A model generated the notes under the pieces. It was not told the origin of the DNA and searched no databases. It saw only the letters and a list, made by a program, of their open reading frames with translations. A stretch of 64,000 bases of DNA from the NCBI RefSeq assembly GCF_029784135.1, contig NC_073744.1, positions 100,561,303 through 100,625,302 on the forward strand, written 5' to 3'. This stretch comes from Toxorhynchites rutilus septentrionalis. Taxonomy: Eukaryota > Arthropoda > Insecta > Diptera > Culicidae. The translations under genes and the position numbers were made by a program. This document shows positions 14,917 through 64,000 of the stretch, piece by piece. The stretch's first letter is position 1, and each line of letters begins with the position of its first letter.

Positions 14917-15434
14917 GACGTAGGACTACGTCTAACCGGAAGATATAGGGGGTGAAATGGAAATCTAGGCACTGAACAAGTAGGAAAAAATGCAAGATTT
15001 GGAACGCTTATAACTCGAGCATTTCTCAATAGATCGCAAAGGTTTTTGCATCAATTGATAGGAAATATATCTACGCATCTATCATAACGAATAACATTTC
15101 ATTTTTCTTGAGATAAATAATTGAATAATTGTGAAATATCAAGCATTGTCAAAATGCACTATGTGTCCATTTTTGATTGGTCCATTTTGTGCTCCTCAAA
15201 TCGAACCGACCAAAACGGGCAACCAGAGCAGCAGCGAAATAGAATGAACCACGATTGGAAAGGAAAAAGAAAAAAATGAACGAAACATTGGTCGCAGTCT
15301 CACACATGCGTAATTCTCGAGCCAGCCAGTCAGCTTAAAAATCCCCGCTCCGCTGCCGTAACGATCATTCTCGTTCAAACCGTACACCACATCGGTTCGC
15401 ATCACAACACATCAACAAACCAACCCAAGCAGCC

Positions 15435-15745
15435 ATGTCTGGACATGGTAAAGGGGGAAAAGTGAAGGGAAAGGCAAAATCCCGCTCAAACCGTGTTGAT
15501 CTGGAGTTCCCCGCAAGGGTAGCTAGGTCGAGCGCGTTAGTACCAGTGCACCAGTCCACCTAGCCGGCGATATAAAGTTTCGGCCGCCGAAGTGATCGAG
15601 TTAGCAAAGCTGCTCGTGACGATAAGAAAACCCGCATTCGGAACAGAACACATTCGGTTCGGTGGACATCAAGACAACAGGCAGTTGCAGCGAGTGGCGG
15701 GTGGCAAACGCAATCGCATAACGGCATCAAGTAGCAGAAGAAAAA
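15435..15745 (+). pseudogene. Histone H2A pseudogene 1
   Basis: It starts with ATG at 15435 and reads MSGHGKGGKVKGKAKSRSNR, the canonical insect H2A N-terminus with one Arg-to-His change. After EFP the frame breaks: the GRIH-type helix 1 block is deleted, and the region matching RKGNYAERVGAGAPVYLA is readable only across frames (about 15511-15565). Stops are present, followed by a VLELA-like and RDDKKTRI-like block near 15590-15635. The C-terminal third cannot be aligned. H2A packages DNA as a dimer with H2B. A histone-type stem-loop lies downstream at 15837. There is no introduced poly(A), so this is not an obvious mRNA retrocopy. Confidence 0.85.
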
Positions 15746-15836
15746 AGTTTGTTCTTTATACAAACTTATCGAAATGGTTTTTTTTTCAAAACCACGAGTA
15801 CTAAGTTTTCTAAATTGGAATCATTCCATAAAACAA

Positions 15837-15852
15837 GGCGCTTTTCAGGGCC
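15837..15852 (+). terminator. Histone 3'-end stem-loop, near-canonical
   Basis: GGCGCTTTTCAGGGCC matches the replication-dependent histone mRNA stem-loop (six-base stem, TTTC loop) with one mismatched pair. It lies about 90-100 bp after H2A pseudogene 1, on the same strand. Confidence 0.65.
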
Positions 15853-16269
15853 ATTAAACCTTCCAAAAAAGAGTTTAAGAAATACAGTTCAATGCTTTCT
15901 AAAACAATATCCAAAATAATAATAAAACACAAATTGATTTTTTCATAATTTGTTTGCCAGGATATGATGAGTATGTGAATTTGGCAGTTGTTCTGAGCTT
16001 ATTGATTTTCACCAATTCTTAAATTGCTTCTAGATTGAAAGTACATTAATTTACAATTATCTCGACATTTAGCTAATTGGACTGACCTGTAATGCGACAT
16101 ATTTAGTTGGACATTTTTGTAAACATAGAGTTCGGGGTCCAAATTATGACCCCACATTGAAAGTCGACATTGTACCACTGTCATCGCGCAAATGTTCAAT
16201 TACAGGTTAAAATTACCTCCAATCCGATACTGAGTGGTGGTAATGCGACGTGCCATTGAATGTAATTTA

Positions 16270-16445
16270 CTGTAAAATATGTCACAAGCTGGATGGGAAG
16301 AAATTTTCCAACTGTGAAAGCTGTGGCGAGTGGCAAATGCAATCGCTAAACAGAAAGGTTTAGCCGAACAAGATGGGGATATTGAGTGATAACAAAACAA
16401 TAAACTCTTTAGATTGAAGATAATTTTGTGAACCTGAAAAGGACC
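16270..16445 (+). repeat. Duplicate of the tail block that follows the H2A copies
   Basis: The block TCACAAGCTGGATGGGAAGA...ACTGTGAAAGCTGTGGCGAG and what follows recurs at about 17027-17130 after H2A pseudogene 2. It marks another, otherwise lost, copy of the H2A unit or an internal duplication. A degenerate stem-loop-like string occurs at about 16430-16455. Confidence 0.6.
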
Positions 16446-16605
16446 CTTTTTAGCCTGCATGTGAATCCAACGAGCGAACAAATCGTAATGAATGTATTTT
16501 TTTGCCATCGCTCCCTTTTAACGCTCATTCGTTCGTCTCGTTGGACTCGCCCCTCTGGCTGAGTCTGCTGATTTGTCTCTATCCTGTGAGTGTGTACCGC
16601 TAGAG

Positions 16606-16612
16606 TATAAAA
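16606..16612 (+). promoter_or_regulatory. TATA box of H2A pseudogene 2
   Basis: TATAAAA sits about 75 bp before the position of the lost ATG of the H2A copy, with a short leader between. Retention of the promoter argues for copying at the DNA level, not from mRNA. Confidence 0.55.
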
Positions 16613-16682
16613 CACGCGGACCCCAAAAAAATATCTTATTTTCTTTCGAACCGTAAACCCGTGTGGTTGTACGGCATCGGCA

Positions 16683-16960
16683 TCGTGGACGTAACAAAGG
16701 AGGACAAGTTAAGGGAAAGGCAAAGTCTCACTCGAACCGTGCAGGTCTCCAGTTCCCTGTTGGTCGCATTCACTGATTGCTCCGCAAGGGTAACTAGGCC
16801 GAACGGATTGGTGCCGGAGCACCAATATACCTAACAGCGATTATAGAGTTTCGGCCGTCGGAGTGCTCGAGTTGGCTTGCAAAGCTGCTCACGACAATCA
16901 GAAAACCCGCATCAAGAACAGAGCAGCTTTGGCTCGGCGCTCATCAAGGCAACAATTAGT
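16683..16960 (+). pseudogene. Histone H2A pseudogene 2
   Basis: The start codon is degraded (ATCGTGGACGTAACAAAGGAGG in place of ATG TCT GGA CGT GGC...). The rest reads [20 protein letters not shown] then GRIH and a stop. RKGN-AERIGAGAPIYLTAI-EF follows near 16782-16855, with in-frame stops and one frameshift, then ARDNQKTRIK-like sequence near 16890. The C-terminal part is not alignable with confidence. It is a better-preserved copy than pseudogene 1 in the histone-fold region but clearly dead. The string CTCATCAAGGCAACAATT near 16940 resembles an H2A.Z C-terminal motif (LIKATI), though the N-terminus is of canonical H2A type. Confidence 0.85.
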
Positions 16961-17152
16961 TTCAGTGAGTGGCAAAGTGTTTCTCCGGCACGTCGCATTA
17001 AATATATCTTACTGAACAACATGTCACAAGCTGGATGGGAAGAGATTTTCCAACTGTGAAAGCTGTGGCGAGTGGCAAACGCAATAGCAAAACAAGAAGG
17101 TTTAACCGAACAAGATGGGAATATCGAGTGATAACAAAAACACAACACCAAA

Positions 17153-17168
17153 GGTTCTTTTCAGAACC
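17153..17168 (+). terminator. Histone 3'-end stem-loop, perfect stem
   Basis: GGTTCTTTTCAGAACC has a perfect six-base stem and TTTC loop, matching the histone mRNA 3'-processing signal. It is in the same orientation as H2A pseudogene 2. Confidence 0.8.
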
Positions 17169-17410
17169 ATCAACATATTCATATAGAGTAAACAGTAAAC
17201 TGATCCATTTTTCAGGTAGATTTTCAGGTTCACGTAGGAGAAGAAAATAAAACAACATATTTAAAATATATCTTTAACAAAAGCTGTCCCCTTTGTATAG
17301 TACTACGTCACTCCGGTTATGTCCCCGACATTACCCACCCGTCTTTTTTATTTTTATTTCTTTCAATTCTTTGATTACTCATTTTTTAAATTCTTTCATT
17401 ATCTTCATAT

Positions 17411-23690: not shown

Positions 23691-23697
23691 ACATAGG

Positions 23698-31029: not shown

Positions 31030-31215
31030 CTGCGTAATAAGCAAAAAGTTAGTTTAATCACATAAAGAAAGCAGTGCGTCGTTAAGCATGAAATTCTGAA
31101 CAACATACAAAGGAAGCCTAAAGCCACAGATCTCGATAATTATCAAATCCAACGGATCTTTTTGAACACTAAACATAATCTATTATATGGAAACATATCG
31201 AGTACTTAAAAAAAA

Positions 31216-32795: not shown

Positions 32796-32799
32796 GAAG

Positions 32800-33148: not shown

Positions 33149-33463
33149 GTGAGTTTTTTTTTTAATTTTTGAATTACAAATACTTCGGCTTAATCGAGAA
33201 TAATTTCCACGTGGCCAAATAACGCTTGAATGCATATGCATTACATTCAGAGATGCCAGGGTTGAAGACATGTCTTCATTTTGAAAACATTTGATTTTGT
33301 GTATGTGGTATAGTGTATGTGGATTTTTGGGAGATATTATTCCAATAAAACTCCTAATATTTGCAGAAAATATCATCAAAAAAAGTAAGGCTTTTAACTT
33401 AGAGTCATTCGTTCACTCTTGTTAGCAGTGTTAGTTGTTGTCTCGGTGTTATTCATTGGTTTT

Positions 33464-47868: not shown

Positions 47869-47906
47869 AGGTTAAGGAAACCAAGCAATGGATTAAGCAC
47901 CAAAAA

Positions 47907-48290
47907 CAGGAAGTGGGTTATATCTATGGTATAACCGCAAGGGTGACGTAGGACTATCGTTGATTTAGAGATCATTTGTTTGAAGTTGAATCTAAATCCA
48001 TCCTGAATGAATGAATAAATAAATATTTGGGTGGCTTAAAAAACGAGAGTGTTACGTTGGAGACTCAAGGTTTTATGCATCCAATATTGGATACAAAAAA
48101 CAGGAAGTGGGTTATATCTATGGTATAACCGCAAGGGTGACGTAGGACTATCGTTGATTTAGAGATCATATATTTGAAGTTGAATCTAAATCCATCCTGA
48201 ATGAATGAATAAATAAATATTTGGGTGACTTCAAAAACGAGAGTGTTACTTTGAAGACCAATGATATCCAATATTGGATACAAAAAACCT
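47907..48290 (+). mobile_element. Two tandem E starts of the GACGTAG superfamily
   Basis: CAGGAAGTGGGTTATATC begins at 47907 and again at 48101. The two copies (about 190 bp each) each end with a CCAATATTGG-containing string and an A-run, then the second passes into the CTTGTTCTGAAGAATAATC block. The doubling may come from insertion of one element at the same site or from slippage. Confidence 0.65.
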
Positions 48291-48752
48291 TGTTCTGAAG
48301 AATAATCTTCAGAAGCTTTCCTGTTAACTGCACTTGATTGACAAATCACAAAACCAAATGTATGTGGTCGCAGTATTATATGGATAGAAAACATTAAAAT
48401 AAACTCGCTTGAATGTAATTTTCAATTCCAAGGGGAACTGGCAGATTATTTTTCAGCAACGATCATTTCTTTCCAGGTTTCCTCTCGATAACCAGCAAAC
48501 GAAAAGAGTTGCGCGCGTGTATGTGTGTGTGTGTGTGGCGGCTGCTTCTATGTCTTCCCGAGGAACCGTATTTCGATGCTGATACTCTCTTGGTCACCTT
48601 CTCTTCTCCTTCTGATCGATCGGCTTTTCTGCGCTCCCTCACAGTTAAAACAAACTGATTGCATTTCAGGTCAGGTCAAGCCAGGTAATGAATACCTCGA
48701 TCCCTCGCCGTTCAGCTCGTTCAGTAACGATGTTGTCTTGTCGATGTCCTCA

Positions 48753-48902
48753 GGCGTCGTGCATAAATTACGTAACGCAAAAATCCGGATTTTGAACCTC
48801 CCCCCCCTTTCGTAACGCAATTTCCTATCTCTAATAAACAGAAAGTAACGCAACATCTAACCCCTCCCCCCTTATCGCGTTACGTAATTCGTGCACGACG
48901 CC
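48753..48902. mobile_element. 150-bp MITE with TCA duplication (copy 1)
   Basis: It has inverted ends GGCGTCGTGCA...TTACGTAACGC over about 26 bp with two mismatches, and is flanked by TCA (48750-48752 and 48903-48905). The uninterrupted site GATGTCCTCACGAAAAATGA exists at about 31767 and, inverted, near 56360, proving the insertion. The second copy is at 61635-61784. Confidence 0.9.
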
Positions 48903-49425
48903 TCACGAAAAATGAATGGGTTTCACCACCAGAATATCATTTCAGTATGCTTTTCGTGCGTGATTGAATCGAGAGAAGGTGTGGTTTACGATGGCAATTT
49001 GGAAGGCAAACTAGAGGAGAATGAACTCTCTGAGTATGAAAATTTCGGCGACTGAGCAATAATCGATTGAAAATTATATAATTTTGGCGATACGAAACAT
49101 TTTCCGTTTTTCATGTTATGCATCCATTATTGGATACGAAAATATCCTACCGATGGGAAAGAATAATCTTCAGAAGCTTTCCAGCTAATTACACTTGATT
49201 GAAAAATTACGAAATCAAATGTATTTCGCCATATAATTAGAAAACATTAAAATAAACTCTTTCGCATGGATGTATTCTTCAATTCCCAGGGAACTGGCAG
49301 TTTATTTTTCAGCAACGATTAGATCTTTCCGGAATTTTCTCGATGCTGTATGGCATCCAAACGAAACTTCTCGTTTCAGTTTGGCCTGCAAAAAACTTTT
49401 CTGAACTCTAATCCATCAAATTTGG

Positions 49426-49441
49426 AGCCCTGAAAAGGGCC
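49426..49441 (-). terminator. Histone 3' stem-loop of H3 pseudogene 1
   Basis: The minus strand reads GGCCCTTTTCAGGGCT, the histone mRNA processing hairpin with a G-T closing pair. It lies about 20 bp after the H3 stop region. Confidence 0.85.
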
Positions 49442-49461
49442 GTTGATTATATGCTAAGCTA

Positions 49462-49828
49462 ATATAGCACCCTCTCCTTGGATTCGACGGGCCAGCTGGA
49501 TGTCCTTGGGCATGATGTGACGCGTTTTACGTGGATAGCACACAAATTTGTATCTTCGAATAAGCCTCCTGCAGCGTCATAACCGCGGAACTTTGGAAGC
49601 GCAAGTCGGTTTTGAAGTCCTGAGCAATTCCACGATCCAAAAGCTGCAAAGGTAGCTTGCGGATCAGCAATTCGGTCGACTTCCGATAGCGATGAATTTC
49701 ACGCAAAGTTCCCGGTCGATAGCGATGTGGCTTCTTCACCTATCCTGCGGCTGGTGCGCTTATCCGAGCTGCTTTCGTGTGCCTTACCACTGAAAGACTA
49801 ACCTGCTATCTGCTTGGTCCCAAACAAA
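49462..49828 (-). pseudogene. Histone H3 pseudogene 1
   Basis: The minus strand keeps TKQ-A, then [34 protein letters not shown] and [17 protein letters not shown], and after a frameshift the [12 protein letters not shown] end. H3 is the core histone whose tail carries most regulatory marks. The N-terminal tail has a stop and small deletions. The codons for about nine residues after LQEA (EASEAYLVG in functional H3) are missing, as in all copies here. The ATG is lost. Confidence 0.9.
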
Positions 49829-50314
49829 CGAGTCGTCACGGTGCGAGAGTAGAGTAAGAAATGAACGAAAGCAAAGGAAGCGTCATTTAATAACCTGTTT
49901 TCGAAGCTATCATTAAGCTATTGAAACAATTTTCCGACTCAATAAATAGCAATCATATAACTCTTGGACATTTTATCTTTTGTATGAAATGATTATCACT
50001 GTTCCGTTGATCCGAAGCAGAATGAATCACGCTTAAAGAAGGAATGGATTTTTTCTTGGAATTTACTCAGCAAAAATAATGCCCTTTCCCAACACTTAAA
50101 AACGACAAACGGTAAACAGTTTCATCAAAGTGATTTCTTCGATATGGGGATATATTCACTACATCATGTCATGTATTTCATATTCTTCATTATGAAATCC
50201 ATATCCATGGCACCTATCGGTATCGAATTATCATCGACACCACGATTTTCGCTAAATGCTCCTTTCAGTTCGGCCTGTAAAAAACTTTTCTGAACTCTAA
50301 TCCATCAAATTTGG

Positions 50315-50330
50315 AGCCCTGAAAAGGGCT
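50315..50330 (-). terminator. Histone 3' stem-loop of H3 pseudogene 2
   Basis: AGCCCTTTTCAGGGCT on the minus strand has a perfect six-base stem. Relative to the other copies the first G is changed to A, which restores a Watson-Crick closing pair. Confidence 0.85.
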
Positions 50331-50354
50331 GTTGATTATATGCTAAGCTAATAT

Positions 50355-50730
50355 AGCACGCTTTCCTCGGATACTATGGGCCAGCTGGATGTCCTTGGGC
50401 ATGATGTGACGCGTTTTGCATGGATAGCACACAAATTGGTATCTTCGAATAAGCCTCCTGCAGCGTCATAACCGCGGAATTTTGGAAGCGCAAGTCGGTT
50501 TTGAAGTCCTGAGCAATTCCACGAACCAAATGCTGCAAAGGTAGCTTGCGGATCACCAATTCTCGGTCGACTTCTGATAGCGACGAATTTCATGCGAAGT
50601 TCCCGGTCGATAGCGATGTGGCTTCTTCACGCTTCCTGCGGCTGGTGCGCTTATCCGAGCTGCTCTCGTGGTGCCTTACCACCGAAGGACTAACGAGCTG
50701 TCTGCTTAGTCCCGATGAAACGAGTCCTCA
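50355..50730 (-). pseudogene. Histone H3 pseudogene 2
   Basis: The minus strand keeps TKQTAR, a stop, GGKAPR, then the [19 protein letters not shown] across frames. [17 protein letters not shown] follows, and in the other frame [20 protein letters not shown]. It shares the deletion after LQEA with the other copies. An upstream promoter block with ATTTTATAAAA (about 50777-50787) lies in the expected place for a minus-strand TATA box. It forms a head-to-head pair with the promoter remnant at 50850-50921. Confidence 0.9.
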
Positions 50731-50772
50731 CGGTGCGAGAGTAGAGTAAGAAATGAACGAAAGCAAGGGAAG

Positions 50773-50921
50773 TGTCATTTTATAAAACATAAAAGAATCG
50801 AATGTAAACCCCACCCTCTTTATTATATAAGCTTACTGTATACTCACGAATATAATAAGGGTGGGATTTAGATTCTATACTTTTATGGTTTATAAAATGA
50901 CGCTTCCTTTGCTTTCGTTCA
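50773..50921. promoter_or_regulatory. Head-to-head H3 promoter pair (inverted repeat)
   Basis: The two halves are imperfect complements (arms of about 60 bp meeting near 50840). Each contains a TTTATAAAATGACRC TATA block followed by CTTTGCTTTCGTTCAT leader sequence. The left half serves H3 pseudogene 2. The right half is the promoter of H3 pseudogene 3, now separated from it by the hAT insertion. Confidence 0.65.
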
Positions 50922-51216: not shown

Positions 51217-51689
51217 CGTCATTGGTTGATTTTCAGGATAAAACTGCAGTGGCCGTACTTTTTTTGACGTAGGACTACGTCTTTCATTTCTATACCGGGG
51301 TGTAAAATCAAAGTTTCGAAAACGAAAGCGTTACGCCGGAGACCGAGATTTTGAGGGTTAATAGCTCCTAAACAACTGAACGAAATGGTATGATAAACAC
51401 TTCATTCGAAAGATAAAATGTCTACGCGTTCTATACTTGTTACTTTTTGATCCAAAAACTTGTTTCAATAGTCTTAAAATTGCATTCAAAACAGGCTATT
51501 GAAATCACCAATCGGTATATAAGCGAGCGCCACTCGGAAATCCACTCAGGATTCATTCTACTGTACACACGTAAAGGGCAGACGTGTTTCCACAGTGCTC
51601 TGATTCTTTTCAAAACAATTAGTACAGTTGAAAGTCTTATTTCTCTGATCGGTTTTTAACGTCGTGTCGCGTTGTTCGTCTCCCCTGCG

Positions 51690-52868
51690 ATGGGAAAGTC
51701 AGGCCTCGGCAAAGGCCACTCTGGTAAACGACCTCTGCCCCCCGGTGGGGAGGGTGACAGTGCTGATGGTGAGTCATCAAGCAGCAAAAAATTGTTGAGT
51801 CATAATCCGTATGCATTGCTCCCGGAAGAGGGAATAGAAAAAAAGGAGAAATTGCCACCCTTTTACACAAAGGGTTTCCCGGAAAATTTTCAAAAGGATA
51901 TCAACCTACTGGTTTCAAGAGGTCTGAAGGCTACGATTCGTCTTTGCACAGACGGTTACAAAATCATCGTCACATCGACACCCAACTATAAAGCAGTGGA
52001 GGAGTATTTGAAGCGGAAAAAAGTGCAGTATTTTACACATGATTTAGTGGCCGATAAACCGTTTAAAGTGATCCTACGTGGTTTACCCGATCTTGATACA
52101 AATGATCTAATTATATCTCTGAAAGAATCTAACCTCAAACCGATAAACATCTACAAAATTAAAAGACATAACACGGAGCATAAATATCGCGACCAATTAT
52201 ACCTCGTCCACTTCCAACGGGGAACAACGTTTCAAGAACTGTCTGGAATAAAAGCTATTTTCAACTTCGCCATTAACTGGGACAAATACAAGCCAAAACA
52301 TCGAGATGTTACACAGTGTTCTAACTGTCTCAATTTTGGGCATGGAGGAAGGAATTGCCACATTAACGCGCGATGTGCCTCTTGCGGTGGAAATCACCCT
52401 ACTAGAGACTGCCTCACACCTGAAGCCAAAAATCCTTGTGTAAATTGTGGAGAAGCCCATTTTTCAATGAATAGAGAGTGTCCAAAACGGGCCGACTATA
52501 TCCGTTTCAGACAGCAAGTTGCCGCTCGTAACCGCCCAACAACGAAAATTAGAAAAGAGCCCAGCTTTGATATAAATTCTTTTCCGGCACTAATAGCTGA
52601 CCAACGCAAATCTAATTCGGTCCAATCACACCACAATAATGCAACAACAAATGCGTCGAACAAGGATTCCCAACCTCCAGGTTATAAAACATTTGCACAA
52701 GTTTGCGGTGCGCCCGCTCCAAATGAACTTTATACGATGGAACAACTGGCAAGTCTGTTTATAGAACTTGATCGTCGTACGAGAGCTTGTGCAACCAACA
52801 ATGAGCAAGTCGCAGTTATGATGACTTTTTACTATCACCATGGTCGAATTCTCGCTGAAAATCCTTAA
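51690..52868 (+). CDS. Jockey-clade LINE ORF1 protein (nucleic-acid binding)
   Basis: The protein has 392 residues from ATG 51690. The N-terminus is Gly/Ser-rich. Residues 60-190 form the conserved gag-like region (DKPFKVILRGLPDLDTNDL at about 125-145). Three zinc knuckles follow at about 210-265: CSNCLNFGHGGRNC, CASCGGNHPTRDC and CVNCGEAHFSMNREC. The tail is Asn/Gln-rich. It should coat element RNA and assist reverse transcription. ORF2 starts 29 bases before its stop, in another frame, so ORF2 is probably made by reinitiation or a similar route. Confidence 0.9.
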   Translation: MGKSGLGKGHSGKRPLPPGGEGDSADGESSSSKKLLSHNPYALLPEEGIEKKEKLPPFYTKGFPENFQKDINLLVSRGLKATIRLCTDGYKIIVTSTPNYKAVEEYLKRKKVQYFTHDLVADKPFKVILRGLPDLDTNDLIISLKESNLKPINIYKIKRHNTEHKYRDQLYLVHFQRGTTFQELSGIKAIFNFAINWDKYKPKHRDVTQCSNCLNFGHGGRNCHINARCASCGGNHPTRDCLTPEAKNPCVNCGEAHFSMNRECPKRADYIRFRQQVAARNRPTTKIRKEPSFDINSFPALIADQRKSNSVQSHHNNATTNASNKDSQPPGYKTFAQVCGAPAPNELYTMEQLASLFIELDRRTRACATNNEQVAVMMTFYYHHGRILAENP

Positions 52869-55491
52869 CTGGAACGCTTGCTCTATAGCAGGTAAGAAAC
52901 TAGAAACCGCTGAATTTCTACTGGAGAATGAAATTGATGTAGTATCCATCACCGAAACACATCTGAAGCCCAATGTTAGTTTCTCCTTACCACAATACAA
53001 TATCGTCCGCCTCGATCGCATTACTGCCACAAAAGGAGGCGTCGCACTTGCGATCAGAAAAGGCATTAAGTTCCAGAGTTTACCATCATTCCAAACCCGC
53101 ATTATTGAAGCTGTTGGAATTGAACTGCTCCTCGACAGTTCCCCAATCACAATCATCTCAGCGTACTGTCCTAAACAAACCAGCTCTACCAATGGACTGT
53201 CTTTGCACTTCAAGAATGATCTTCACAAGCTGACTCGCCGTTCCGGCAAGTTCCTCGTAACTGGTGATTTAAACGCCCGATACACGTTATGGGGAAACAT
53301 CACCAACAATAACAACGGTCGTTTATTAGCAGACGATGCTTCACACGGAGAATATGTAGTGCTCCACCCAGATTCACCAACTTACTTCTCCCATGCTGGA
53401 ATTGGTTCAACGCTTGATATTTTCCTGACAAACATCGCGGAAAGCATGTCGATGCCTAAGACAATCTCCGCACTTTCATCAGATCATCTTCCTGTGGTTG
53501 CAGAAATAAATTTAGCAGTGTATCACCATCGTATGCTAAGAAAAAATTATCATCGAGTAGATTGGATGCAGTTCCAGCGATATATAGAACAACGTATCAA
53601 CGAAAACGCAACGGTGGAAACAACTGAACATATTGAGTTAGCACTTGATTCCTTTACGCGACTCATCGAAGAAGCCGAGGAGCGCTTTATTCCTCTGATA
53701 CCTGTAACATGTAAGTTCATCAATATTGATATTACCACGAAACGACTAATTAGCATCCGAAACACAGTGAGAAGACAGTATCAGCGCACGAATTGTACAA
53801 ACAGTAAATATGTTTACAAAAATCTCACCAGAATCATCCAATCGAGACTAAATAGTTTGAAAAACACGTATTTCAATGAAGAAATGAAAAACTTGGGGAA
53901 CTATTCTCAGCCCTTCTGGCGAGTAACGAAAATTCTCAAAAACAGGCGTAAACCGATTCCTCCGCTGAATAGTACAAATGGTATTATTATCACTCCACTT
54001 GAAAAGGCAAACATGTTCGCGAACAATTTCAGCTCAGCTCATGCATTGGGTAACAATATTGCTAGCCCGTTTGAGGCAGATGTATTAGCAACCATCCAGC
54101 AATTAGAGAATACTCCGAATGATTTTTCCCTCGATCATAGAGTCACGACCGAAGAAATAAAAACCAACATCAAATGCTCCAGAAACATGAAAGCTCCTGG
54201 ATTTGATGCAATATTCAACTTAGTGCTGAAAAAATTGGGTCCTAAAGCATTAGTCCTCCTTGAAAAAATCTTCAATGGTTGTTTCTTCATTGGCTATTTT
54301 CCGACCCAATGGAAATTGGCCAAGGTGATTCCAGTATTGAAGCCTGGGAAGGACCCCACTTGTCCAAAAAGTTATAGGCCGATAAGCTTGTTATCTTCAC
54401 TAAGTAAAATTTTAGAGAAATCAATTCAAAGTCGTGTGCTTAGTTACTCCGAACAGAACAATATCATACTTCCAGAACAATTTGGTTTTCGTCGAGGACA
54501 CTCCACAACTCATCAGCTGTTGAGATTGAAAAACATCATCACAAGGAACAAAGAAATTTCAAAAACGACGGTTATGGCGCTTTTAGACGTCGAGAAAGCA
54601 TTCGACAATGTGTGGCACAAAGGTCTCGTTTTCAAACTAGTGCGGTACAATTTTCCGACATATCTAACAAAAATGATTCGCAGTTATCTGGAACATCGCA
54701 CTTCCAAGGTGTTCACGAATGGCATGTTATCACTTGCATACGACGTTGTTGCCGGAGTTCCACAAGGAAGTATAATGGGACCACTTCTATACAACTTATA
54801 TACCTCTGACATACCGCCTCTTCCAAACAATGGACAGATTTCGTTGTTTGCTGATGACTCTGCCATTATTTATAATGGTAGATGCATAAATCATCTGACT
54901 AACAACTTGCAGAATGGACTCAACGCTTACGTAAACTACTTGCGATCGTGGAAGGTCTGCGTGAATATTTCGAAAACGAAAGCTATTTTGTTTCCGCATA
55001 GAAACAGAAAAATACTCCTGAACCCACCTGAGGAATTAACTGTGTTTGGACAAAATATTCCGTGGTCCACCGAAGTGCGCTATCTTGGTGTAGTGCTGGA
55101 TAGGAAGCTGACATTTAAACATCACATCGAAGCTACTGTGGATAAGTGTTTAATTTTACTGAAGAAGCTGTACCCGCTAATAAACCGAAAGTCGAAACTC
55201 TCCAAGATAAATAAATTAGCAATATACAGACAAATAGTACAACCCGTGCTGCTGTATGGATGTCCAATATGGATGAAATGTGCAAATAGTCATTTGAAAA
55301 AGGTTCAAATAATTCAAAATAGATTTCTGAAAATTATATTAAATCTTTACACAAGAACACCCACTAATTTTGTACACAGACTAGCTGAAATTAAGCAAAT
55401 TACAGAAATAATCTCCGAGAAACTTAACAAACTTAGAACAAGCTCAAGTATGTCTGAATTCCACCTTATAAGAGGTCTATTTCCAAATTAG
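52840..55491 (+). CDS. Jockey-clade LINE ORF2 (endonuclease and reverse transcriptase)
   Basis: The protein has 883 residues from ATG 52840. An APE-type endonuclease occupies about 5-225, with NWNACS, ITETHL (catalytic Glu), GDLNAR and SSDHLPV (catalytic Asp-His). The reverse transcriptase spans about 470-750, with YRPISLLSSLSKILEK, ALLDVEKAFD (first Asp), GVPQGS and FADDSA (Asp pair at about 672). The C-terminal region ends LRTSSSMSEFHLIRG, without RNase H. All key residues I can check are present. It nicks target DNA and primes cDNA synthesis from element RNA. Confidence 0.93.
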   Translation: MVEFSLKILNWNACSIAGKKLETAEFLLENEIDVVSITETHLKPNVSFSLPQYNIVRLDRITATKGGVALAIRKGIKFQSLPSFQTRIIEAVGIELLLDSSPITIISAYCPKQTSSTNGLSLHFKNDLHKLTRRSGKFLVTGDLNARYTLWGNITNNNNGRLLADDASHGEYVVLHPDSPTYFSHAGIGSTLDIFLTNIAESMSMPKTISALSSDHLPVVAEINLAVYHHRMLRKNYHRVDWMQFQRYIEQRINENATVETTEHIELALDSFTRLIEEAEERFIPLIPVTCKFINIDITTKRLISIRNTVRRQYQRTNCTNSKYVYKNLTRIIQSRLNSLKNTYFNEEMKNLGNYSQPFWRVTKILKNRRKPIPPLNSTNGIIITPLEKANMFANNFSSAHALGNNIASPFEADVLATIQQLENTPNDFSLDHRVTTEEIKTNIKCSRNMKAPGFDAIFNLVLKKLGPKALVLLEKIFNGCFFIGYFPTQWKLAKVIPVLKPGKDPTCPKSYRPISLLSSLSKILEKSIQSRVLSYSEQNNIILPEQFGFRRGHSTTHQLLRLKNIITRNKEISKTTVMALLDVEKAFDNVWHKGLVFKLVRYNFPTYLTKMIRSYLEHRTSKVFTNGMLSLAYDVVAGVPQGSIMGPLLYNLYTSDIPPLPNNGQISLFADDSAIIYNGRCINHLTNNLQNGLNAYVNYLRSWKVCVNISKTKAILFPHRNRKILLNPPEELTVFGQNIPWSTEVRYLGVVLDRKLTFKHHIEATVDKCLILLKKLYPLINRKSKLSKINKLAIYRQIVQPVLLYGCPIWMKCANSHLKKVQIIQNRFLKIILNLYTRTPTNFVHRLAEIKQITEIISEKLNKLRTSSSMSEFHLIRGLFPN

Positions 55492-55741
55492 TTTTTTTTT
55501 TTTAGTTTAAGTAGGGTAATAAATTAAAATAAACAAATTGAATAGCAATGTAAATCACATATAGCAAAAACTAGTTATGGCAAAGAAAAACTATTGAAAA
55601 ATTAATTAACAAAACCAAAGATGAAAAACATAACACATGTTGTATCACTTGAACTGTAACACTAATTAATGTAAAACCACCATTTACTGTATAGAAATAA
55701 ATAAAATTGATTGATTGATTGATTGATGGAAATCCACTCAG

Positions 55742-57144
55742 TTCTAATTGAACAGCGATTGGAGCATGTTGTCGCTGTTGTGGTGAAACTCTTCGTTTAT
55801 CATGAAAGCGCGGATGAACGGTGTCACCAAGAGCCTGTTTGTGCACCCTAGGCCAGAAGGGAATCCATCAGGAGGAGAGTGATGCCACAAACGGTTCCCC
55901 GGGAAGACATCGGTACACACACATACACGCGCAGAATTCTTTCCATTTGGATGCCATTCAGCATCGAGAAAGTTCCAGAAAGATCTAATCATTTCTGGAA
56001 AATAATCTGCCAGTTCCTCTGGGAATTTAAAAATACATTCATGTGAAAGAGTTTATTTTAATGTTTTCTAACCATCTAACACAGCGATCAAATACATTTG
56101 ATTTTGTAATTTTTCAACCAAGTGTAATTCGCAGGAAAGCTTCTGAAGATTATTCTTCCCCATCAGTAGGATATTTCCGTATCCAGTATTGTATGCGTAC
56201 GCAATCGATTATTGCTCAGTCGCCGAAAGTTTCGAGCTCAGAGAGTTCATTCCCCTCTAGTTTGCCTTCCAAATTGCCATCGTAAACCACGCCTTCTCTC
56301 GATTCAATCACGCACAAAAAGCATACTTAAGCGATATTCTGGTGGTGAGACGCATTCATTTTTCGTGAGGACATCGACAAGACAACATTGTTGCTGAGGG
56401 TGCTGGACGGCGAAGGATCGAGATCTGCCCTGAAACGCAAGCAGTTTGTTTGAAACTGTGAGGGAGCACAGAGAAGCCGATCCTTCAGGAGAAGAGAAGA
56501 TGACCATCGAAGCAGCCGCTACACACACACATACACGCACGGAATTCTTTCCGTTTGGATGCTATTCAGCATCGAGAAAGATCCGGAAAATAATCGATCA
56601 GTTCCTCTGGGAATTTAAAAATACATTCATGTGAAAGGGTTTATTTGAATGTTTTCTATCCATGTAACACTGTGACCAAATATGTTTCAACCAAGTGCTA
56701 TTTACAGGTGGTTATCGAATTAGCATTAACCACTGGTGGGCTTCCAGTATCGAGGAAAATTTGGGAATATCTAATCGTTGCTGGAAAATAATCTGCCAGT
56801 TCCCCTTGGAATTGAAAATTACATTCAAGCGAAAGAGTTTATTTTAATGTTTTCTATCCATAAAATATCCATATAATACATTTGGGTTTGTGATTTGTTA
56901 ATCAAGTACAGTTAGCAGGAAAGCTGGTAAAGATTATTCTTCAGAACAAGGTTTTTCGTATCCTATATTGGATGCATAACACCTTGTGCCTCCAACGTAA
57001 CGCTCTCGTTTTCTCGTCCCCCAAATATTCATTTATTGATTCATTCAGAATGGATTTAGATTCAACTTCAAACAAATGATCTCTAAATCAACTATAGTCC
57101 AACGTCACCCTTGCGGTTATACCATAGATATAACCCACTTCCTG
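55742..57144 (-). other. Right part of the LINE-split GACGTAG element
   Basis: It continues the promoter-like block interrupted by the LINE. The minus-strand (CA)n-rich string ACACACACATACACGC occurs twice (about 55915 and 56520), showing an internal duplication, and GTGAGGACATCGACAAG at about 56365 is an unoccupied MITE site. The stretch contains no gene. Open frames of 60-80 codons here are remnants shared between copies and I cannot assign them. Confidence 0.5.
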
Positions 57145-57339
57145 TTTTTTGCTCTGGGCTTGGATCGATTAATCGACGTAAACTATTCGTTCGCTTCGAT
57201 TATTGGTTGTTCAGTATTCGTTCGATTAATAATCGATTTCTGTATGAAGTATTCGATTAATCGATTAATCGAACGATTATCGGAGATCACTATTCGTTCA
57301 TTTCTTACTCTACTCTCGCACCGTGAGGACTCGAGCTCG

Positions 57340-57706
57340 TTAGTCTTTCGCAGACAGCTCGTTAGTCATTCGGTGGTAAGGCACACGAAGTCAGCTCGGA
57401 TAAGCGCACCAGTAGCAGGATAGGTGGAGAAGCCACATCGCTATCGACCGGGAACTTTGCGTGAAATTCATCGCTATCAGAAGTCGACCGAATTGCGGAT
57501 CCACAGCTACCTTTGCAGCATTTGGATCGTGGAATTGCTCAGGACTTCAAAACCGACTTGCGCTTCCAAAGTTCCGCGGCTATGACGCTGCAGGAGGCTT
57601 ATTCGAAGATACCAATTTGTGTGCTATCCATGCAAAACGCGTCACATCATGCCCAAGGACATCCAGCTGGCCCATCGTATCCGAGGAGAGCGTGCTATAT
57701 TAGCTT
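57340..57706 (+). pseudogene. Histone H3 pseudogene 3
   Basis: The plus strand keeps CGCAGACAGCTCG (QTAR region), GGTGGTAAGGCA and AGAAGCCACATCGCTATCGACC (KPHRYRP). Next is [17 protein letters not shown] in one frame, and [19 protein letters not shown] then VSEESVLY in another. It shares the deletion after LQEA. Its promoter half lies at 50850-50921, separated by the hAT insertion. The downstream flank (GAACTGAAAGGAGCATTTAGCG) is the same as in copy 6. Confidence 0.9.
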
Positions 57707-57720
57707 AGCATATAATCAAC

Positions 57721-57736
57721 GGCCCTTTTCAGGGCT
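57721..57736 (+). terminator. Histone 3' stem-loop of H3 pseudogene 3
   Basis: GGCCCTTTTCAGGGCT, same as copies 1, 4, 5 and 6. Confidence 0.85.
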
Positions 57737-57779
57737 CCAAATTTGATGGATTAGAGTACAGAAAAGTTTTTTACAGGCC

Positions 57780-59113
57780 GAACTGAAAGGAGCATTTAGC
57801 GAAAATCGTGGTTTCGATAATAATTCGTTACCGATAGGTGCCATGGATATGGATTTCTTAATGAAGAATATGAAATACATGACATGATGTAGTGAATATA
57901 TCCGAAGAAATCACTTTGGTGAAACTGCATTATGAAATTATTTGTGTACGAATGCCGCAATCGATAGTCGACTCTAATTTGCGTTGGGTAATTTCCTCTG
58001 AGGACTCGATTCCTCCTTTGAACATTAATAATCTCTTTCTGGCAAAACGATGTGGTATGAATCACATTATTTGAATGATAGAATGAAGAAGTTTTCTGCC
58101 AATTTCCTTCAACCTCCAAACGTATCATTCTCCCGGTTGTCGTTTTCGCGTTCGCTAATCCTTTCTCACAACACCCATTTCTCGTTTGAGAAATTGTTGA
58201 GTAAACATTGTTTGCCAGTGCGCGTAGAGCGGGAATTCCTAAAGATTCATTGCACCTCTAATAAATTGCCGAAAGACGTGGTCTTACGTTGATCGCACTT
58301 GATTGAAAAAAATCCAAAACGAAATGTATTTGGTCGCAGCATTATATGAGTAGAAAGCAAATAATCGCTCGAAAATGACTTGATTTTCGCGATGTGAAAC
58401 ATTTTCCGTTTTTCATGTTATGCATCCAATAATGGATACGAAAATTTCCACTGATGGGGAAAAAAATATTCAGAAGCTTTCCTGTTAATTACGATTGATT
58501 GAAAAATAACAAAACCAAATGTATTTGGTTGCAGTGTTATATGGATAGAAAACATTAAAATAAACTCTTTCGCATGAATGTATTTTTCAATTCCCAGGGG
58601 AACTGGCAGATTATTTTTCAGCAACGATGATAGCAACGAGAATTCCGCGCGTGTATGTGTGTGTGTGGCGGCTGCTCCGATGTTTCAAGCGGAACCGTGG
58701 CATCACTCTCCTCCTGATGGATTCCCTTTTGGCCTTAGGTGCTCAAACAAGCTCTTGGTGACACCGTTCATCAGCGTTTTCATGATAAACGAAATTAGCT
58801 TCACAACAACAGCGACAACATGCTCCAATCGCTGTTCAATCATAACTGAGTGGGTTTACGAGCGGCGCTCGCTTATATACCGATTGGTGATTTCAATAGC
58901 CTGTTTTGAAAGCAATTTTAAGACTATTGAAACAAGTTTTTGGATGAAAAAGTAACAAGTATATGACGCGTAGACATTTTATCTTTCAAATGAAGTGTTT
59001 ATCATACCATTTCGTTCAGTTGTTTAGGAGCTATTAACGCTCAAAATCTCGGTCTCCAGCGTAACGCTTTTGTTCTCGAAACTTTGGTTTTACACCCCGG
59101 TATAGAAATGAAA
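57780..59113. other. Spacer of the H3 array, no gene recognised
   Basis: Open frames on both strands (up to 125 codons at 58578-58955) are shared with the duplicate at 63.2-64 kb and have no known motif. The stretch 58640-59050 contains the CGCTTATATACCGATTGG promoter-like block and the GGAGCTATTAACGCTCAAAA block seen at 32.6-32.8 kb. It ends with an ACCCCGGTATAGAAATGAAA string before the element end. Confidence 0.5.
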
Positions 59114-59129
59114 GACGTAGTCCTACGTC
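59114..59129 (+). repeat. Terminal motif GACGTAG-TC-CTACGTC of a GACGTAG element
   Basis: Perfect 7-bp arms around TC, followed by AAAA. Same context as the end at 51266-51281 (inverted), including the CCGGTATAGAAATGAAA string just before it. Confidence 0.7.
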
Positions 59130-60075
59130 AAAACCTTGTTCTGAAGAATAATCTTCAGAAGCTTTCCTGCTAACTGCACTTGATTGACAAATCACAAAAC
59201 CAAATGTATGTGGTCGCAGTATTATATGGATAGAAAACATTAAAATAAACTCGCTTGAATGTAATTTTCAATTCCAAGGGGAACTGGCAGATTATTTTTC
59301 AGCAACGATCATTTCTTTCCAGGTTTCCTCTCGATAACCAGCAAATGAAAAGAGTTGCGCGCGTGTATGTGTGTGGGTGTGGCGGCTGCTTCTATGTCTT
59401 CCCGAGAAACCGTATTTCGATGCTGATACTCTCTTGGTCACGAGAGTATCAGCATCGGCTTTTCTGCGCTCCCTCACAGTTAAAACAAACTGATTGCATT
59501 TCAGGTCAGGTCAGGCCAGGTAATGAATCCCTCGATCCCTCGCCGTTCAGCTCGTTCAGTAACGATGTTGAATATCATTTCAGTATGCTTTTCGTGCGTG
59601 ATTGAATCGAGAGAAGGTGTGGTTTACGATGGCAATTTGGAAGGCAAACTAGAGGAGAATGAACTCTCTGAGTATGAAAATTTCGGCGACTGAGCAATAA
59701 TCGATTGAAAATTATATAATTTTCGCGATACGAAACATTTTCCGTTTTTCATGTTATGCATCCAATATTGGATACGAAAATATCCTACTGATGGGAAAGA
59801 ATAATCTTCAGAAGCTTTCCAGCTAATTACACTTGATTGAAAAATTACGAAATCAAATGTATTTGGTCGCTGTGTTCGCCATATAATTTGAAAACATTAA
59901 AATAAACTCTTTCGCATGGATGTATTCTTCAATTCCCAGGGAACTGGCAGATTATTTTTCAGCAACGATTAGATCTTTCCGGAATTTTCTCGATGCTGTA
60001 TGGCATCCAAACGAAAATTCTCGTTTTAGTTTGGCCTGTAAAAAACTTTTCTAAACTCTAATCCATCAAATTTGG

Positions 60076-60091
60076 AGCCCTGAAAAGGGCC
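60076..60091 (-). terminator. Histone 3' stem-loop of H3 pseudogene 4
   Basis: GGCCCTTTTCAGGGCT on the minus strand, about 20 bp past the H3 end. Confidence 0.85.
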
Positions 60092-60111
60092 GTTGATTAT
60101 ATGCTAAGCTA

Positions 60112-60475
60112 ATATAGCACCCTTTCCTTGGATTCGATGGGCCAGCTGAATGTCCTTGGGCATGATGTGACGCGTTTTGCGTGGATAGCACATAAATTGG
60201 TATCTTCGAATAAGCCTCCTGCAGCGTCATAACCGCGGAACTTTGGAAGCGCAAGTCTGTTTTGAAGTCCTGAGCAATTCCACGATCCAAAAGCTGCAAA
60301 GGTAGCTTGCGGATCAGCAATTCGGTCGACTTCCGATAGCGATGAATTTCACGCAAAGTTCCCGGTCGATAGCGATGTGGCTTCTTCACCTATCCTGCGG
60401 CTGGTGCGCTTATCCGAGCTGCTTTCATGTGCCTTACCACTGAAAGACTAACTAGCTATCTGCTTGGTCCCAAAC
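60112..60475 (-). pseudogene. Histone H3 pseudogene 4
   Basis: The minus strand reads [40 protein letters not shown] and [13 protein letters not shown], then the shared deletion and [10 protein letters not shown] in the shifted frame. The N-terminal tail is degraded. Its promoter is retained: a TATA block complement to TTTTATAAACC lies at 60536-60546, about 65 bp upstream of the lost ATG. Confidence 0.9.
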
Positions 60476-60622
60476 AAACGAGTCGTCACGGTGCGAGAGT
60501 AGAGTAAGAAATGAACGAAAGCAAAGGAAGCGTCATTTTATAAACCATAAAAGTATAGAATCTAAACCCCACCCTTCGTTGCTTACCCTGAGAGAGAAAC
60601 GAATAACATCGAAGTAAGTATA

Positions 60623-60847: not shown

Positions 60848-60977
60848 TAAAAAAGAGTTAACTCGACTGAATTTTTTTCGGTTCGGCCTGCAAAAACGAA
60901 ATTAAGAGCCCTCGCCGACTGCAGACTGACTTGTCGACCGATAGTTCGGTCGGCTTCTTAATCAGTACGGAAAAAAA

Positions 60978-61170
60978 CAGGAAGTGGGTTATATCTATGG
61001 TATAACCGCAAGGGTGACGTAGGACTATCGTTGATTTAGAGATCATTTGTTTGAAGTTGAATCTAAATCCATCCTGAATGAATGAATAAATAAATATTTG
61101 GGTGACTTCAAAAACGAGAGTGTTACTTTGAAGACTCAAGGTTTTATGCATCCAATATTGGATACAAAAA
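60978..61170 (+). mobile_element. E start of a GACGTAG superfamily member
   Basis: CAGGAAGTGGGTTATATC, the GGTTATA/TATAACC palindrome, GGGTGACGTAGGACTATCG and the CCAATATTGG string in the usual order, continuing into the block that holds H3 pseudogene 5. Confidence 0.65.
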
Positions 61171-61634
61171 ATCTTGTTCTGAAGAATAATCTTCAGAAGC
61201 TTTCCTGTTAACTGCACTTGATTGACAAATCACAAAACCAAATGTATGTGGTCGCAGTATTATATGGATAGAAAACATTAAAATAAACTCGCTTGAATGT
61301 AATTTTCAATTCCAAGGGGAACTGGCAGATTATTTTTCAGCAACGATCATTTCTTTCCAGGTTTCCTCTTGATAACCAGCAAACGAAAAGAGTTGCGCGC
61401 GTGTATGTGTGTGTGTGTGGCGGCTGCTTCTATGTCTTCCCGAGTAACCATATTTCGATGCTGATACTCTCTTGGTCACCTTCTCTTCTCCTTCTGATCG
61501 ATCGGCTTTTCTGCGCTCCCTCACAGTTAATACAAACTGATTGCATTTCAGGTCAGGTCAAGCCAGGTAATGAATACCTCGATCCCTCGCCGTTCAGCTC
61601 GTTCAGTAACGATGTTGTCTTGTCGATGTCCTCA

Positions 61635-61784
61635 GGCGTCGTGCACAAATTACGTAACGCAAAAATCCGAATTTTGAACCTCCCCCCCCTTTCGTAACGC
61701 AATTTCCTATCTCTAATAAACAGAAAGTAACGCAACATCTAACCCCTCCCCCCTTATCACGTTACGTAATTTGTGCACGACGCC
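61635..61784. mobile_element. 150-bp MITE with TCA duplication (copy 2)
   Basis: Same element and same position within the array block as 48753-48902, flanked by TCA. It was therefore present before the two blocks were duplicated. A few substitutions distinguish them. Confidence 0.9.
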
Positions 61785-62319
61785 TCACGAAAAATGAATG
61801 GGTTTCACCACCAGAATATCATTTCAGTATGCTTTTCGTGCGTGATTGAATCGAGAGAAGGTGTGGTTTACGATGGCAATTTGGAAGGCAAACTAGAGGA
61901 GAATGAACTCTCTGAGTATGAAAATTTCGGCGACTGAGCAATAATCGATTGAAAATTATATAATTTTGGCGATACGAAACATTTTCCGTTTTTCATGTTA
62001 TGCATCCATTATTGGATACGAAAATATCCTACTGATGGGAAAGAATAATCTTCAGAAGCTTTCCAGCTAATTACACATGATTGAAAAATTACGAAATCAA
62101 ATGTATTTGGTCGCTGTGTTCGCCATATAATTAGAAAACATTAAAATAAACTCTTTCGCATGAATGTATTCTTCAATTCCCAGGGAACTGGCAGATTATT
62201 TTTCAGCAACGATTAGATCTTTCCGGAATTTTCTCGATGCTGTATGGCATCCAAACGAAAATTCTCGTTTCAGTTTGGCCTGCAAAAAACTTTTCTGAAC
62301 TCTAATCCATCAAATTTGG

Positions 62320-62335
62320 AGCCCTGAAAAGGGCC
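62320..62335 (-). terminator. Histone 3' stem-loop of H3 pseudogene 5
   Basis: GGCCCTTTTCAGGGCT on the minus strand. Confidence 0.85.
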
Positions 62336-62355
62336 GTTGATTATATGCTAAGCTA

Positions 62356-62675
62356 ATATAGCACACTCTCCTTGGATTCGACGGGCCAGTTGAATGTCCT
62401 TGGGCATGAAGTGACGCGTTTTGCATGGATAGCACACAAATTTGTATCTTCGAAAAAGCCTCCTGCAGCGTCATAACCGCGGAACTTTGGAAGCGCAAGT
62501 CGGTTTTGAAGTCCTGAGCAATTCCACGATCCAAAAGCTGCAAAGGTAGCTTGCGGATCAGCAATTCGGTCGACTTCTGATAGCGATGAATTTCACGCAA
62601 AATTCCCGGTCGATAGCGATGTGGCTTCTTCACCTATCCTGCGGCTGGTGCGCTTATCCGAGCTGCTTTCGTGTG
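62356..62675 (-). pseudogene. Histone H3 pseudogene 5, tail truncated
   Basis: The minus strand reads [20 protein letters not shown] and then as in copy 4, with the shared deletion after LQEA. At about 62675 the N-terminal tail is cut and joined directly to GATTTAGATTCTATAC, the promoter of the divergent copy 6. So a head-to-head pair has lost the promoter and start of one partner. Confidence 0.9.
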
Positions 62676-62770
62676 ATTTAGATTCTATACTTTTATGGTT
62701 TATAAAATGACGCTTCCTTTGCTTTCGTTCATTTCTTACTCTACTCTCGCACCGTGAGGACTCGAGCTCG
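62676..62770 (+). promoter_or_regulatory. H3 promoter, uninterrupted form
   Basis: It holds GATTTAGATTCTATAC, TTTATAAAATGACGC (TATA box, about 62699-62707), CTTTGCTTTCGTTCATTTC and a leader to the H3 tail. It is the empty form of the hAT insertion site. It is similar to mosquito core histone promoters in layout, inferred only from the TATA position. Confidence 0.65.
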
Positions 62771-63137
62771 TTAGTCTTTCGCAGACAGCTCGTTAGTCAT
62801 TCGGTGGTAAGGCACACGAAGTCAGCTCGGATAAGCGCACCAGTAGCAGGATAGGTAGAGAAGCCACATCGCTATCGACCGGGAACTTTGCGTGAAATTC
62901 ATCGCTATCAGAAGTCGACCGAATTGCTGATCCGCAGCTACCTTTGCAGCATTTGGATCGTGGAATTGCTCAGGACTTCAAAACCGACTTGCGCTTCCAA
63001 AGTTCCGCGGCTATGACGCTGCAGGAGGCTTATTCGAAGATACCAATTTGTGTGCTATCCAGGCAAAACGCGTCACATCATGCCCAAGGACATCCAGCTG
63101 GCCCATCGTATCCGAGGAGAGCGTGCTATATTAGCTT
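62771..63137 (+). pseudogene. Histone H3 pseudogene 6
   Basis: It is nearly identical to copy 3 (offset 5431), including [36 protein letters not shown], the shared deletion and the GERA-region end. One difference turns CCATGCAAAACG into CCAGGCAAAACG. Its promoter is intact at 62676-62770. Confidence 0.9.
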
Positions 63138-63151
63138 AGCATATAATCAAC

Positions 63152-63167
63152 GGCCCTTTTCAGGGCT
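63152..63167 (+). terminator. Histone 3' stem-loop of H3 pseudogene 6
   Basis: GGCCCTTTTCAGGGCT, in the same place as in copy 3. Confidence 0.85.
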
Positions 63168-63199
63168 CCAAATTTGATGGATTAGAGTACAGAAAAGTT

Positions 63200-64000
63200 T
63201 TTTACAGGCCGAACTGAAAGGAGCATTTAGCGAAAATCGTGGTTTCGATAATAATTCGTTACCGATAGGTGCCATGGATATGGATTTCTTAATGAAGAAT
63301 ATGAAATACATGACATGATGTAGTGAATATATCCGAAGAAATCACTTTGGTGAAACTGCATTATGAAATTATTTGTGTACGAATGCCGCAATCGATAGTC
63401 GACTCTAATTTGCGCTGGGTAATTTCCTCGGAGGACTCGATTCCTCCTTTGAACATTAATAATCTCTTTCTGGCAAAACGATGTGGTATGAATCACATTA
63501 TTTGAATGATAGAATGAAGAAGTTTTCTGCCAATTTCCTTCAACCTCCAAACGTATCTTTCCCCCGTTTGTCGTTTTCGCGTTCGCTAATCCTTTCTCAC
63601 AACACCCATTTCTCGTTTAAGAAATTGTTGAGTAAACATTGTTTGCCAGTGCGCGTAGAGCGGGAATTCCTAAAGATTCATTGCACCTCTAATAAATTGC
63701 CGAAAGACGTGGTCTTACGTTGATCGCACTTGATTGAAAAAATCCAAAACGAAATGTATTTGGTCGCAGCATTATATGAGTAGAAAGCAAATAATCGCTC
63801 GAAAATGACTTGATTTTCGCGATGTGAAACATTTTCCGTTTTTCATGTTATGCATCCAATATTGGATACGAAAATTTCCACTGATGGGGAAAAAAAATAT
63901 TCAGAAGCTTTCCTGTTAATTGCGATTGATTGAAAAATAACAAAACCAAATGTATTTGGTTGCAGTGTTATATGGATAGAAAACATTAAAATAAACTCTT
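63200..64000. other. Array spacer, duplicate of 57769-58569
   Basis: It matches the spacer after H3 pseudogene 3 almost base for base. It holds no recognisable gene and is cut by the window end. Confidence 0.6.

What the first reader, a model, noticed from the sequence alone, without database searches (positions are those of the whole stretch)
14917..64000. A repeat superfamily that appears to carry replication-dependent histone genes
Members share an end motif GACGTAG-NN-CTACGTC followed by an A-run and, near the other end, GTGACGTAG-NN-CTA preceded by ATAACC. One member (14917-17340) holds two H2A pseudogenes. The H3-bearing blocks at 47.9-64 kb are joined to the same kind of start (E). The M-type copies share a homologous block (near 37.54-37.64 kb) with the H3-array family. 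Histone copies keep TATA boxes and 3' stem-loops, so the copying was from DNA. Histone-gene capture by a mobile repeat would be unusual, and I know of no description of it. The alternative is an exploded orphan histone cluster into which repeats inserted.
Basis: partly seen in the sequence, partly recalled or inferred. Interest (0 to 1): 0.9.

Follow-up and report, generated by a model that had tools for sequence, protein, structure and literature searches.

The report
Histone pseudogenes carried by Helentron-like transposons
In a mosquito-like genome segment, elements that look like rolling-circle jumping genes carry and multiply dead copies of H2A and H3 histone genes, a further example of something reported before in Culex mosquitoes.

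Summary
GACGTAGNNCTACGTC is far above chance. It marks a family of mobile elements of which I mapped six 5' ends and ten 3' ends in the window. One element with both ends (14910-17349) encloses two dead H2A copies and a histone 3' stem-loop. Six dead H3 copies at 49.5-63.1 kb lie in related copies and share disabling lesions, so an already dead H3 was multiplied; this argues against an exploded histone cluster. Homology stops at the T-runs. No complete H3-bearing element lies in the window: its two ends are seen on different copies. Verdict: new member of a known kind. Genome-wide copy number, the transposase source and the functional histone cluster are untested, because the genome search did not complete in ten requests.

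The parts
14910..17349 (+). HINE-like element A (2,440 bp), both ends, carrying two H2A pseudogenes
   Evidence: 5' T-run plus GACGTAGGACTACGTC at 14917; 3' subTIR, hairpin 17315-17335 and T-run ending 17349. Its boundaries rest on the end motifs alone: no second copy of A to compare
15435..15638 (+). H2A pseudogene 1 (frameshifts, stop at codon 39)
   Evidence: tblastn; frameshift-aware alignment
15832..15877 (+). Degenerate histone 3' stem-loop after H2A copy 1
   Evidence: Rfam RF00032, 24.0 bits, below the gathering score of 34
16687..16973 (+). H2A pseudogene 2 (stops at codons 32 and 39, frameshift at codon 57)
17148..17192 (+). Histone 3' UTR stem-loop
   Evidence: Rfam RF00032, 39.7 bits, above the gathering score
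6011..7673 (-). HINE-like element B (M-type), both ends, no histone found
33460..35484 (+). HINE-like element C (M-type), both ends, no histone found
36708..38003 (-). HINE-like element D (M-type), both ends, no histone found
51259..57150 (+). HINE-like element F (E-type), both ends, no histone found, interrupted by a LINE
51550..55727 (+). Non-LTR retrotransposon inserted in element F, flanked by a 14-bp duplication at 51536-51549 and 55728-55741
   Evidence: Pfam RVT_1 and Exo_endo_phos; duplication
5600..5766 (-). 3'-end fragment N of an E-type element
31208..32785 (-). E-type copy K, 3' end present, 5' end not found, no histone found
47902..50817 (-). H3-bearing E-type copy I (3' end in tandem at 47902 and 48095; 5' end not found)
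49466..49778 (-). H3 pseudogene I1
50355..50710 (-). H3 pseudogene I2
57293..59133 (-). H3-bearing E-type copy G: 5' end at 59133, 3' end not found; H3 runs antisense to the element
57351..57696 (+). H3 pseudogene G
59134..60575 (-). H3-bearing fragment J with no end of its own seen; copy G's 5' end sits in J's internal T-run
60116..60425 (-). H3 pseudogene J
60971..64000 (-). H3-bearing E-type copy H: 3' end at 60971, runs off the window
62360..62672 (-). H3 pseudogene H1
62782..63127 (+). H3 pseudogene H2

Best explanation
These are most likely non-autonomous Helentrons (HINEs, the DINE-1 class of rolling-circle transposons), and several of them carry captured pieces of replication-dependent histone genes. 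Element orientation is: T-run, palindromic 5' subTIR GACGTAGNNCTACGTC, cargo, inverted 3' subTIR, a 21-nt hairpin, 6-9 nt, T-run. Shown: this anatomy, sharp boundaries of the E- and M-type copies, the histone cargo, and the lesions shared by the H3 copies. Inferred: a rolling-circle transposase (Rep/helicase/endonuclease) encoded elsewhere in the genome copied an element past its 3' hairpin into adjacent histone DNA, or joined two neighbouring elements. The histone piece decayed, was duplicated inside the element and was then spread with it. The histone pieces are passengers and are unlikely to encode protein.
For: Six 5' ends and ten 3' ends align. Among six E-type and three M-type 3' ends, all 18 within-type pairs score 101-200 over the 100 bp inside and 11-20 over the 100 bp outside, against a shuffled median of 15 and maximum of 23; in 4 of 4 within-type pairs of 5' ends the scores are 158-179 inside and 12-19 outside. 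In the 3' hairpin, 7 distinct sequences, 87.3% of cells pair (3 of 500 shuffles as high) and 8 cells have changes on both sides (0 of 500), covariation score 0 of 500; slid controls pair 25-37%. The layout matches the published HINE description (PMC4067079). H3 lesions shared by 6 of 6: loss of two codons at 47-48, about 22 bp near codons 95-102 and 1 bp near codon 120; by 5 of 5 copies covering the region: a stop at K10 and a frame-breaking deletion near codons 17-23 (16 nt in I2, 17 in the other four) (re-checks with patterns written from the alignment). Both H2A copies share a stop at codon 39 and a frameshift at codon 57. Copy G's 5' end sits in a T-run that is uninterrupted in three sister copies.
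Against: No complete H3-bearing element is in the window; its ends are on different copies. The H2A element A is single, so inside/outside comparison could not test its ends. The exact inverted match between the two ends of one element is 16, 12, 8, 8 and 6 bp in B, C, D, A and F; three fall short of the 11 bp that Thomas et al. use for a family, presumably through decay. Two hairpin measures are weak: pairs with a change on both sides (4; 34 of 500 shuffles reach it) and further pair types (5 against 6.7; 499 of 500). No Rep/helicase domain was found in 20 of the 134 ORFs, and the partner was not found genome-wide because the search did not complete. A duplication made only of T's cannot be excluded, and copy G's insertion shows one junction only. 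Some H3-bearing copies lie close together and are rearranged, so local duplication also contributed.
Confidence: 0.85

Rival explanations
1. An orphan histone cluster broke up, and unrelated repeats inserted into and around its decaying genes.
For: Several H3 copies lie within 15 kb in mixed orientation.
Against: The H3 copies share lesions, so they descend from one dead copy rather than decaying separately. The homologous block ends at the terminal T-run with unrelated flanks. No H4, H2B or H1 was found. The functional cluster itself could not be examined.
Confidence: 0.05
2. Local segmental duplication, not transposition, multiplied the H3 block after one capture event.
For: Blocks of 97-99% identity lie close together: 48095-49781 with 60972-62675, and 57293-58569 with 62724-64000. 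Tandem 194-bp 3' ends at 47902 and 48095.
Against: Copies at 47902 and 60971 are alike up to the T-run and unrelated outside. A 5' end sits in a T-run that is intact in three sister copies. Mixed modes remain possible.
Confidence: 0.2
3. Cut-and-paste MITEs or SINE/LINE-type retroelements carry the histone pieces.
For: Short inverted repeats near both ends and T-runs (A-runs on the other strand) at the ends.
Against: The inverted repeats are subterminal and the ends asymmetric; by eye no non-T target duplication in the five elements with both ends. Histone pieces keep 3' stem-loops, some keep TATA, and two run antisense to the element.
Confidence: 0.05

Closest known systems
Helentron-Cq-32A, Culex quinquefasciatus (Thomas, Vadnagara, Pritham 2014, Mob DNA 5:18, PMC4067079; abstract, passages and sections 6, 8 and 12 seen)
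   Same: Helentron with palindromic subTIRs, 3' stem-loop and T-runs, carrying broken fragments of two histone genes in eight copies
   Different: The paper names the fragments H4 superfamily (smart00428) and H15. The parent it cites spans 408 bp, which fits 136 codons, the length of H3, and I recall (from no call) that smart00428 is the H3 model, so one fragment may be H3 as here; H2A is not mentioned in the section on gene capture. Its subTIR letters were not available to compare.
HINE-Mo families and DINE-1/INE-1 (same paper)
   Same: Non-autonomous; subTIR positions; palindrome near the 3' end; insertion in T-rich sequence without other duplication
   Different: The paper found no protein-coding gene fragment in the mite families
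Helitrons with captured genes, e.g. Helraiser/Helibat (PMC4778049; abstract and passages seen)
   Same: 3' hairpin acts as a terminator; bypass leads to capture of flanking DNA
   Different: Helitrons have 5'-TC and CTRR-3' ends and insert between A and T; those ends are not seen here

Membership tests
Helentron/HINE | Palindromic 5' subTIR close to the 5' terminus, at a T-run | tested here: met
   6 of 6 5' ends: T-run of 4-7 then G(A/G)CGTAGNNCTACGTC
Helentron/HINE | Inverted subTIR copy tens of bases inside the 3' end (about 38-60 bp in the mite families) | tested here: met
   All 10 3' ends keep the core (9 TACGTCA, F57 AACGTCA), 34-38 bp before the T-run, 40-46 bp with T's, at the lower edge
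Helentron/HINE | At least 11 bp identical subTIRs (the paper's rule for a family) | tested here: inconclusive
   Exact inverted match within one element: B 16, C 12, D 8, A 8, F 6 bp
Helentron/HINE | Palindrome 8-35 bp from the 3' terminus | tested here: met
   Hairpin ends 6-9 bp before a T-run of 5-8 in 10 of 10; covariation
Helentron/HINE | T-rich target, no other target duplication | tested here: inconclusive
   All 16 ends lie at T-runs; by eye no non-T duplication in the 5 elements with both ends; one internal site compared, one junction only
Helentron/HINE | Autonomous partner with Rep/helicase/endonuclease | not tested
   The genome search, ten requests, never answered; none among 20 of 134 window ORFs scanned
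Canonical Helitron | 5'-TC and CTRR-3' termini, insertion between A and T | tested here: not met
   Ends lie at T-runs without TC/CTRR
Cut-and-paste transposon/MITE | Terminal inverted repeats plus fixed target duplication | tested here: not met
   Inverted repeats are subterminal; no non-T duplication seen by eye
Replication-dependent histone gene (source of the cargo) | 3' stem-loop | tested here: met
   RF00032 at 17148 above the cut-off; six H3-associated loops and one at 15832 below it
Processed retrocopy of a histone mRNA | Promoter absent from the copy | tested here: not met
   TATAAA upstream of H3 in three of six aligned copies and at 16606 for one H2A

The most novel reading that the evidence does not exclude
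Mosquito Helentrons take up replication-dependent histone genes again and again (H2A and H3 here in separate elements; two histone fragments in a Culex Helentron), more than chance would give. Either they insert readily in tandem histone arrays or their replication is tied to S phase. The copied promoters and 3' stem-loops may still make histone-like transcripts.
Probability: 0.25. Interest if true: 0.65.

Novelty: new member of a known kind. Interest (0 to 1): 0.38.

Why it matters
It adds H2A, and H3 unless the Culex fragment is itself H3, to the histone types found in Helentron-like elements, so the 2014 Culex case is probably not a single oddity. It gives element ends by which histone-bearing copies can be searched for, and it warns annotators that histone-like sequences in such genomes may be transposon cargo.

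Tried and rejected
Viral contigs: the bare palindrome matched 23 stretches; none shared more with the window at E<=1e-3 (one search confirmed that all 23 were in the file), so these are taken as chance. Longer end patterns found nothing in viral contigs, and one of them nothing in genome contigs. A protein search with the frameshifted H3 tail had no candidate, and one with an ORF inside the element had 13 candidates and none at E<=0.001. Two literature searches returned no paper; the 2014 paper was reached through a reference seen. 'M-type and H3-type share a block' shrank to 50 bp at 74% for H3-bearing copies. That the tandem 194-bp 3' ends at 47902/48095 prove nested insertion was considered and dropped: a tandem duplication between T-runs fits as well.
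Full report
Observation. The palindrome GACGTAGNNCTACGTC occurs 8 times with up to 2 mismatches in the 64-kb window, against 0.07 expected in shuffles; six of the 8 are 5' ends and two are palindromic 3' repeats of M-type copies. One histone 3' stem-loop passes Rfam's threshold (17148-17192). Seven more, one at 15832 and one beside each H3 copy, lie below it.

Anatomy. Ten 3' ends and six 5' ends were cut out and aligned. In element orientation the 5' end is a T-run of 4-7 followed by G(A/G)CGTAGNNCTACGTC. The 3' end has the inverted core (TACGTCA in nine, AACGTCA in F57), 5-8 nt, a 21-nt hairpin, 6-9 nt and a T-run of 5-8. Five elements have both ends: A 14910-17349(+), B 6011-7673(-), C 33460-35484(+), D 36708-38003(-) and F 51259-57150(+). 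The exact inverted match between the two ends of one element is 8, 16, 12, 8 and 6 bp in that order. F is split by a LINE with a 14-bp duplication. K, I, G, H, J and N are partial copies.

Hairpin. In seven distinct sequences of the 3' hairpin (ten rows), 87.3% of cells pair (3 of 500 shuffles as high). Eight cells have a change on both sides and the covariation score is 0.354; 0 of 500 shuffles reach either. Slid controls pair 25-37% of cells. Two measures are weak: pairs with a change on both sides (4; 34 of 500 shuffles) and further pair types (5 against a mean of 6.7; 499 of 500).

Boundaries. Among six E-type and three M-type 3' ends, all 18 within-type pairs score 101-200 over the 100 bp inside and 11-20 outside, against a shuffled median of 15 and maximum of 23. 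The 5' ends behave the same way in 4 of 4 within-type pairs. Thus homology, including that of H3-bearing copies I (47902) and H (60971), stops at the T-run. Element A had no within-type partner and is not covered by this test. Copy G's 5' end lies in the T-run after CTTCAGAACAAG(G/A); the same T-run is uninterrupted in three sister copies, at 48284, 56939 and 61168, but G's other junction is not seen.

Cargo. A frameshift-aware alignment lists the lesions. All six H3 copies lack two codons at 47-48, about 22 bp near codons 95-102 and 1 bp near codon 120. Five of five copies that cover the N-terminal part have a stop at K10 and a frame-breaking deletion near codons 17-23 (16 nt in I2, 17 in the other four). 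A stop at G35 is in five of six, not in I2. Patterns written from the alignment matched 29 of 30 times, the miss being H1, which lacks that region (not an independent test). So one dead H3 was most likely multiplied. The two H2A copies of element A share a stop at codon 39 and a frameshift at codon 57, and each also has lesions of its own. TATAAA in three of six H3 copies and before one H2A, with the stem-loops, points to copying from DNA.

What is and is not enclosed. Element A encloses H2A between both ends. For H3, copy G joins the 5' end to an H3 block that is 98.9% identical to part of H, and H joins the 3' end to H3, but H runs off the window and G's 3' end was not found. A complete H3-bearing element is therefore inferred, not seen. 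Local duplication also added copies.

Comparison. Thomas et al. 2014 (PMC4067079; abstract, passages and sections 6, 8 and 12 seen) describe Helentrons and HINEs with palindromic subTIRs, a 3' palindrome, T-rich targets and no other duplication. [quoted passage not shown] The cited parent of the first spans 408 bp, the length of 136 codons, which fits H3 rather than H4; that smart00428 is the H3 model is my recollection, and a paper search for it with 'histone H3' found only that paper. So the Culex precedent may include H3 itself. Helraiser work (PMC4778049, abstract and passages) supports the inferred capture step: the 3' hairpin is a terminator that can be bypassed. The ten searches of the held library showed no other report in the titles and abstract starts that they listed. 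I opened three papers in all (PMC4344730, passages only is the third); long listings were cut (15 of 17, 10 of 19, 8 of 10), and most subscription papers are not held.

Host. Among 50 listed relatives of a LINE in the window (7,994 best candidates scored, E<=1e-50), five carry a name: Malaya (2), Mythimna, a moth, Toxorhynchites and Anopheles. Four of the five are mosquitoes, so a mosquito is likely; the genus is not shown.

Limits. The own-genome search was requested ten times and never answered. Copy number, dispersion, the autonomous partner, empty sites in the genome and the functional histone cluster are therefore untested. No Rep/helicase domain was found in 20 of the 134 window ORFs of at least 80 aa, which is not a full six-frame search.

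Noticed in passing
17411-17930: Tandem array of 2.8 copies of a 182-bp unit shortly after element A.
   Followed up: no
17604-22827: Three near-identical (99.6-99.7%) copies of a 1.75-kb block with an ORF. One copy's ORF has helix-turn-helix matches above cut-off and a Tc3-type transposase match below its cut-off.
   Followed up: partly
22468-26905: A 2.2-kb block repeated in tandem at 99.6% identity.
   Followed up: no
8485-13900, minus strand: Probable remains of a non-LTR retrotransposon; one ORF (9881-10750) matches reverse transcriptase.
   Followed up: partly
60646-60823: Foldback sequence beside H3 copy J; miRNA-family matches far below their cut-offs.
   Followed up: no
50920-51070 and 57152-57293: By eye, ATTAATCG-rich sequence next to two H3-bearing copies, with the H3 upstream region cut at a similar point in both.
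   Followed up: no
48750-48910: C-run-bearing sequence (GTAACGCAA...CGTGCACGACGCC) inside copy I, not assigned.
   Followed up: no
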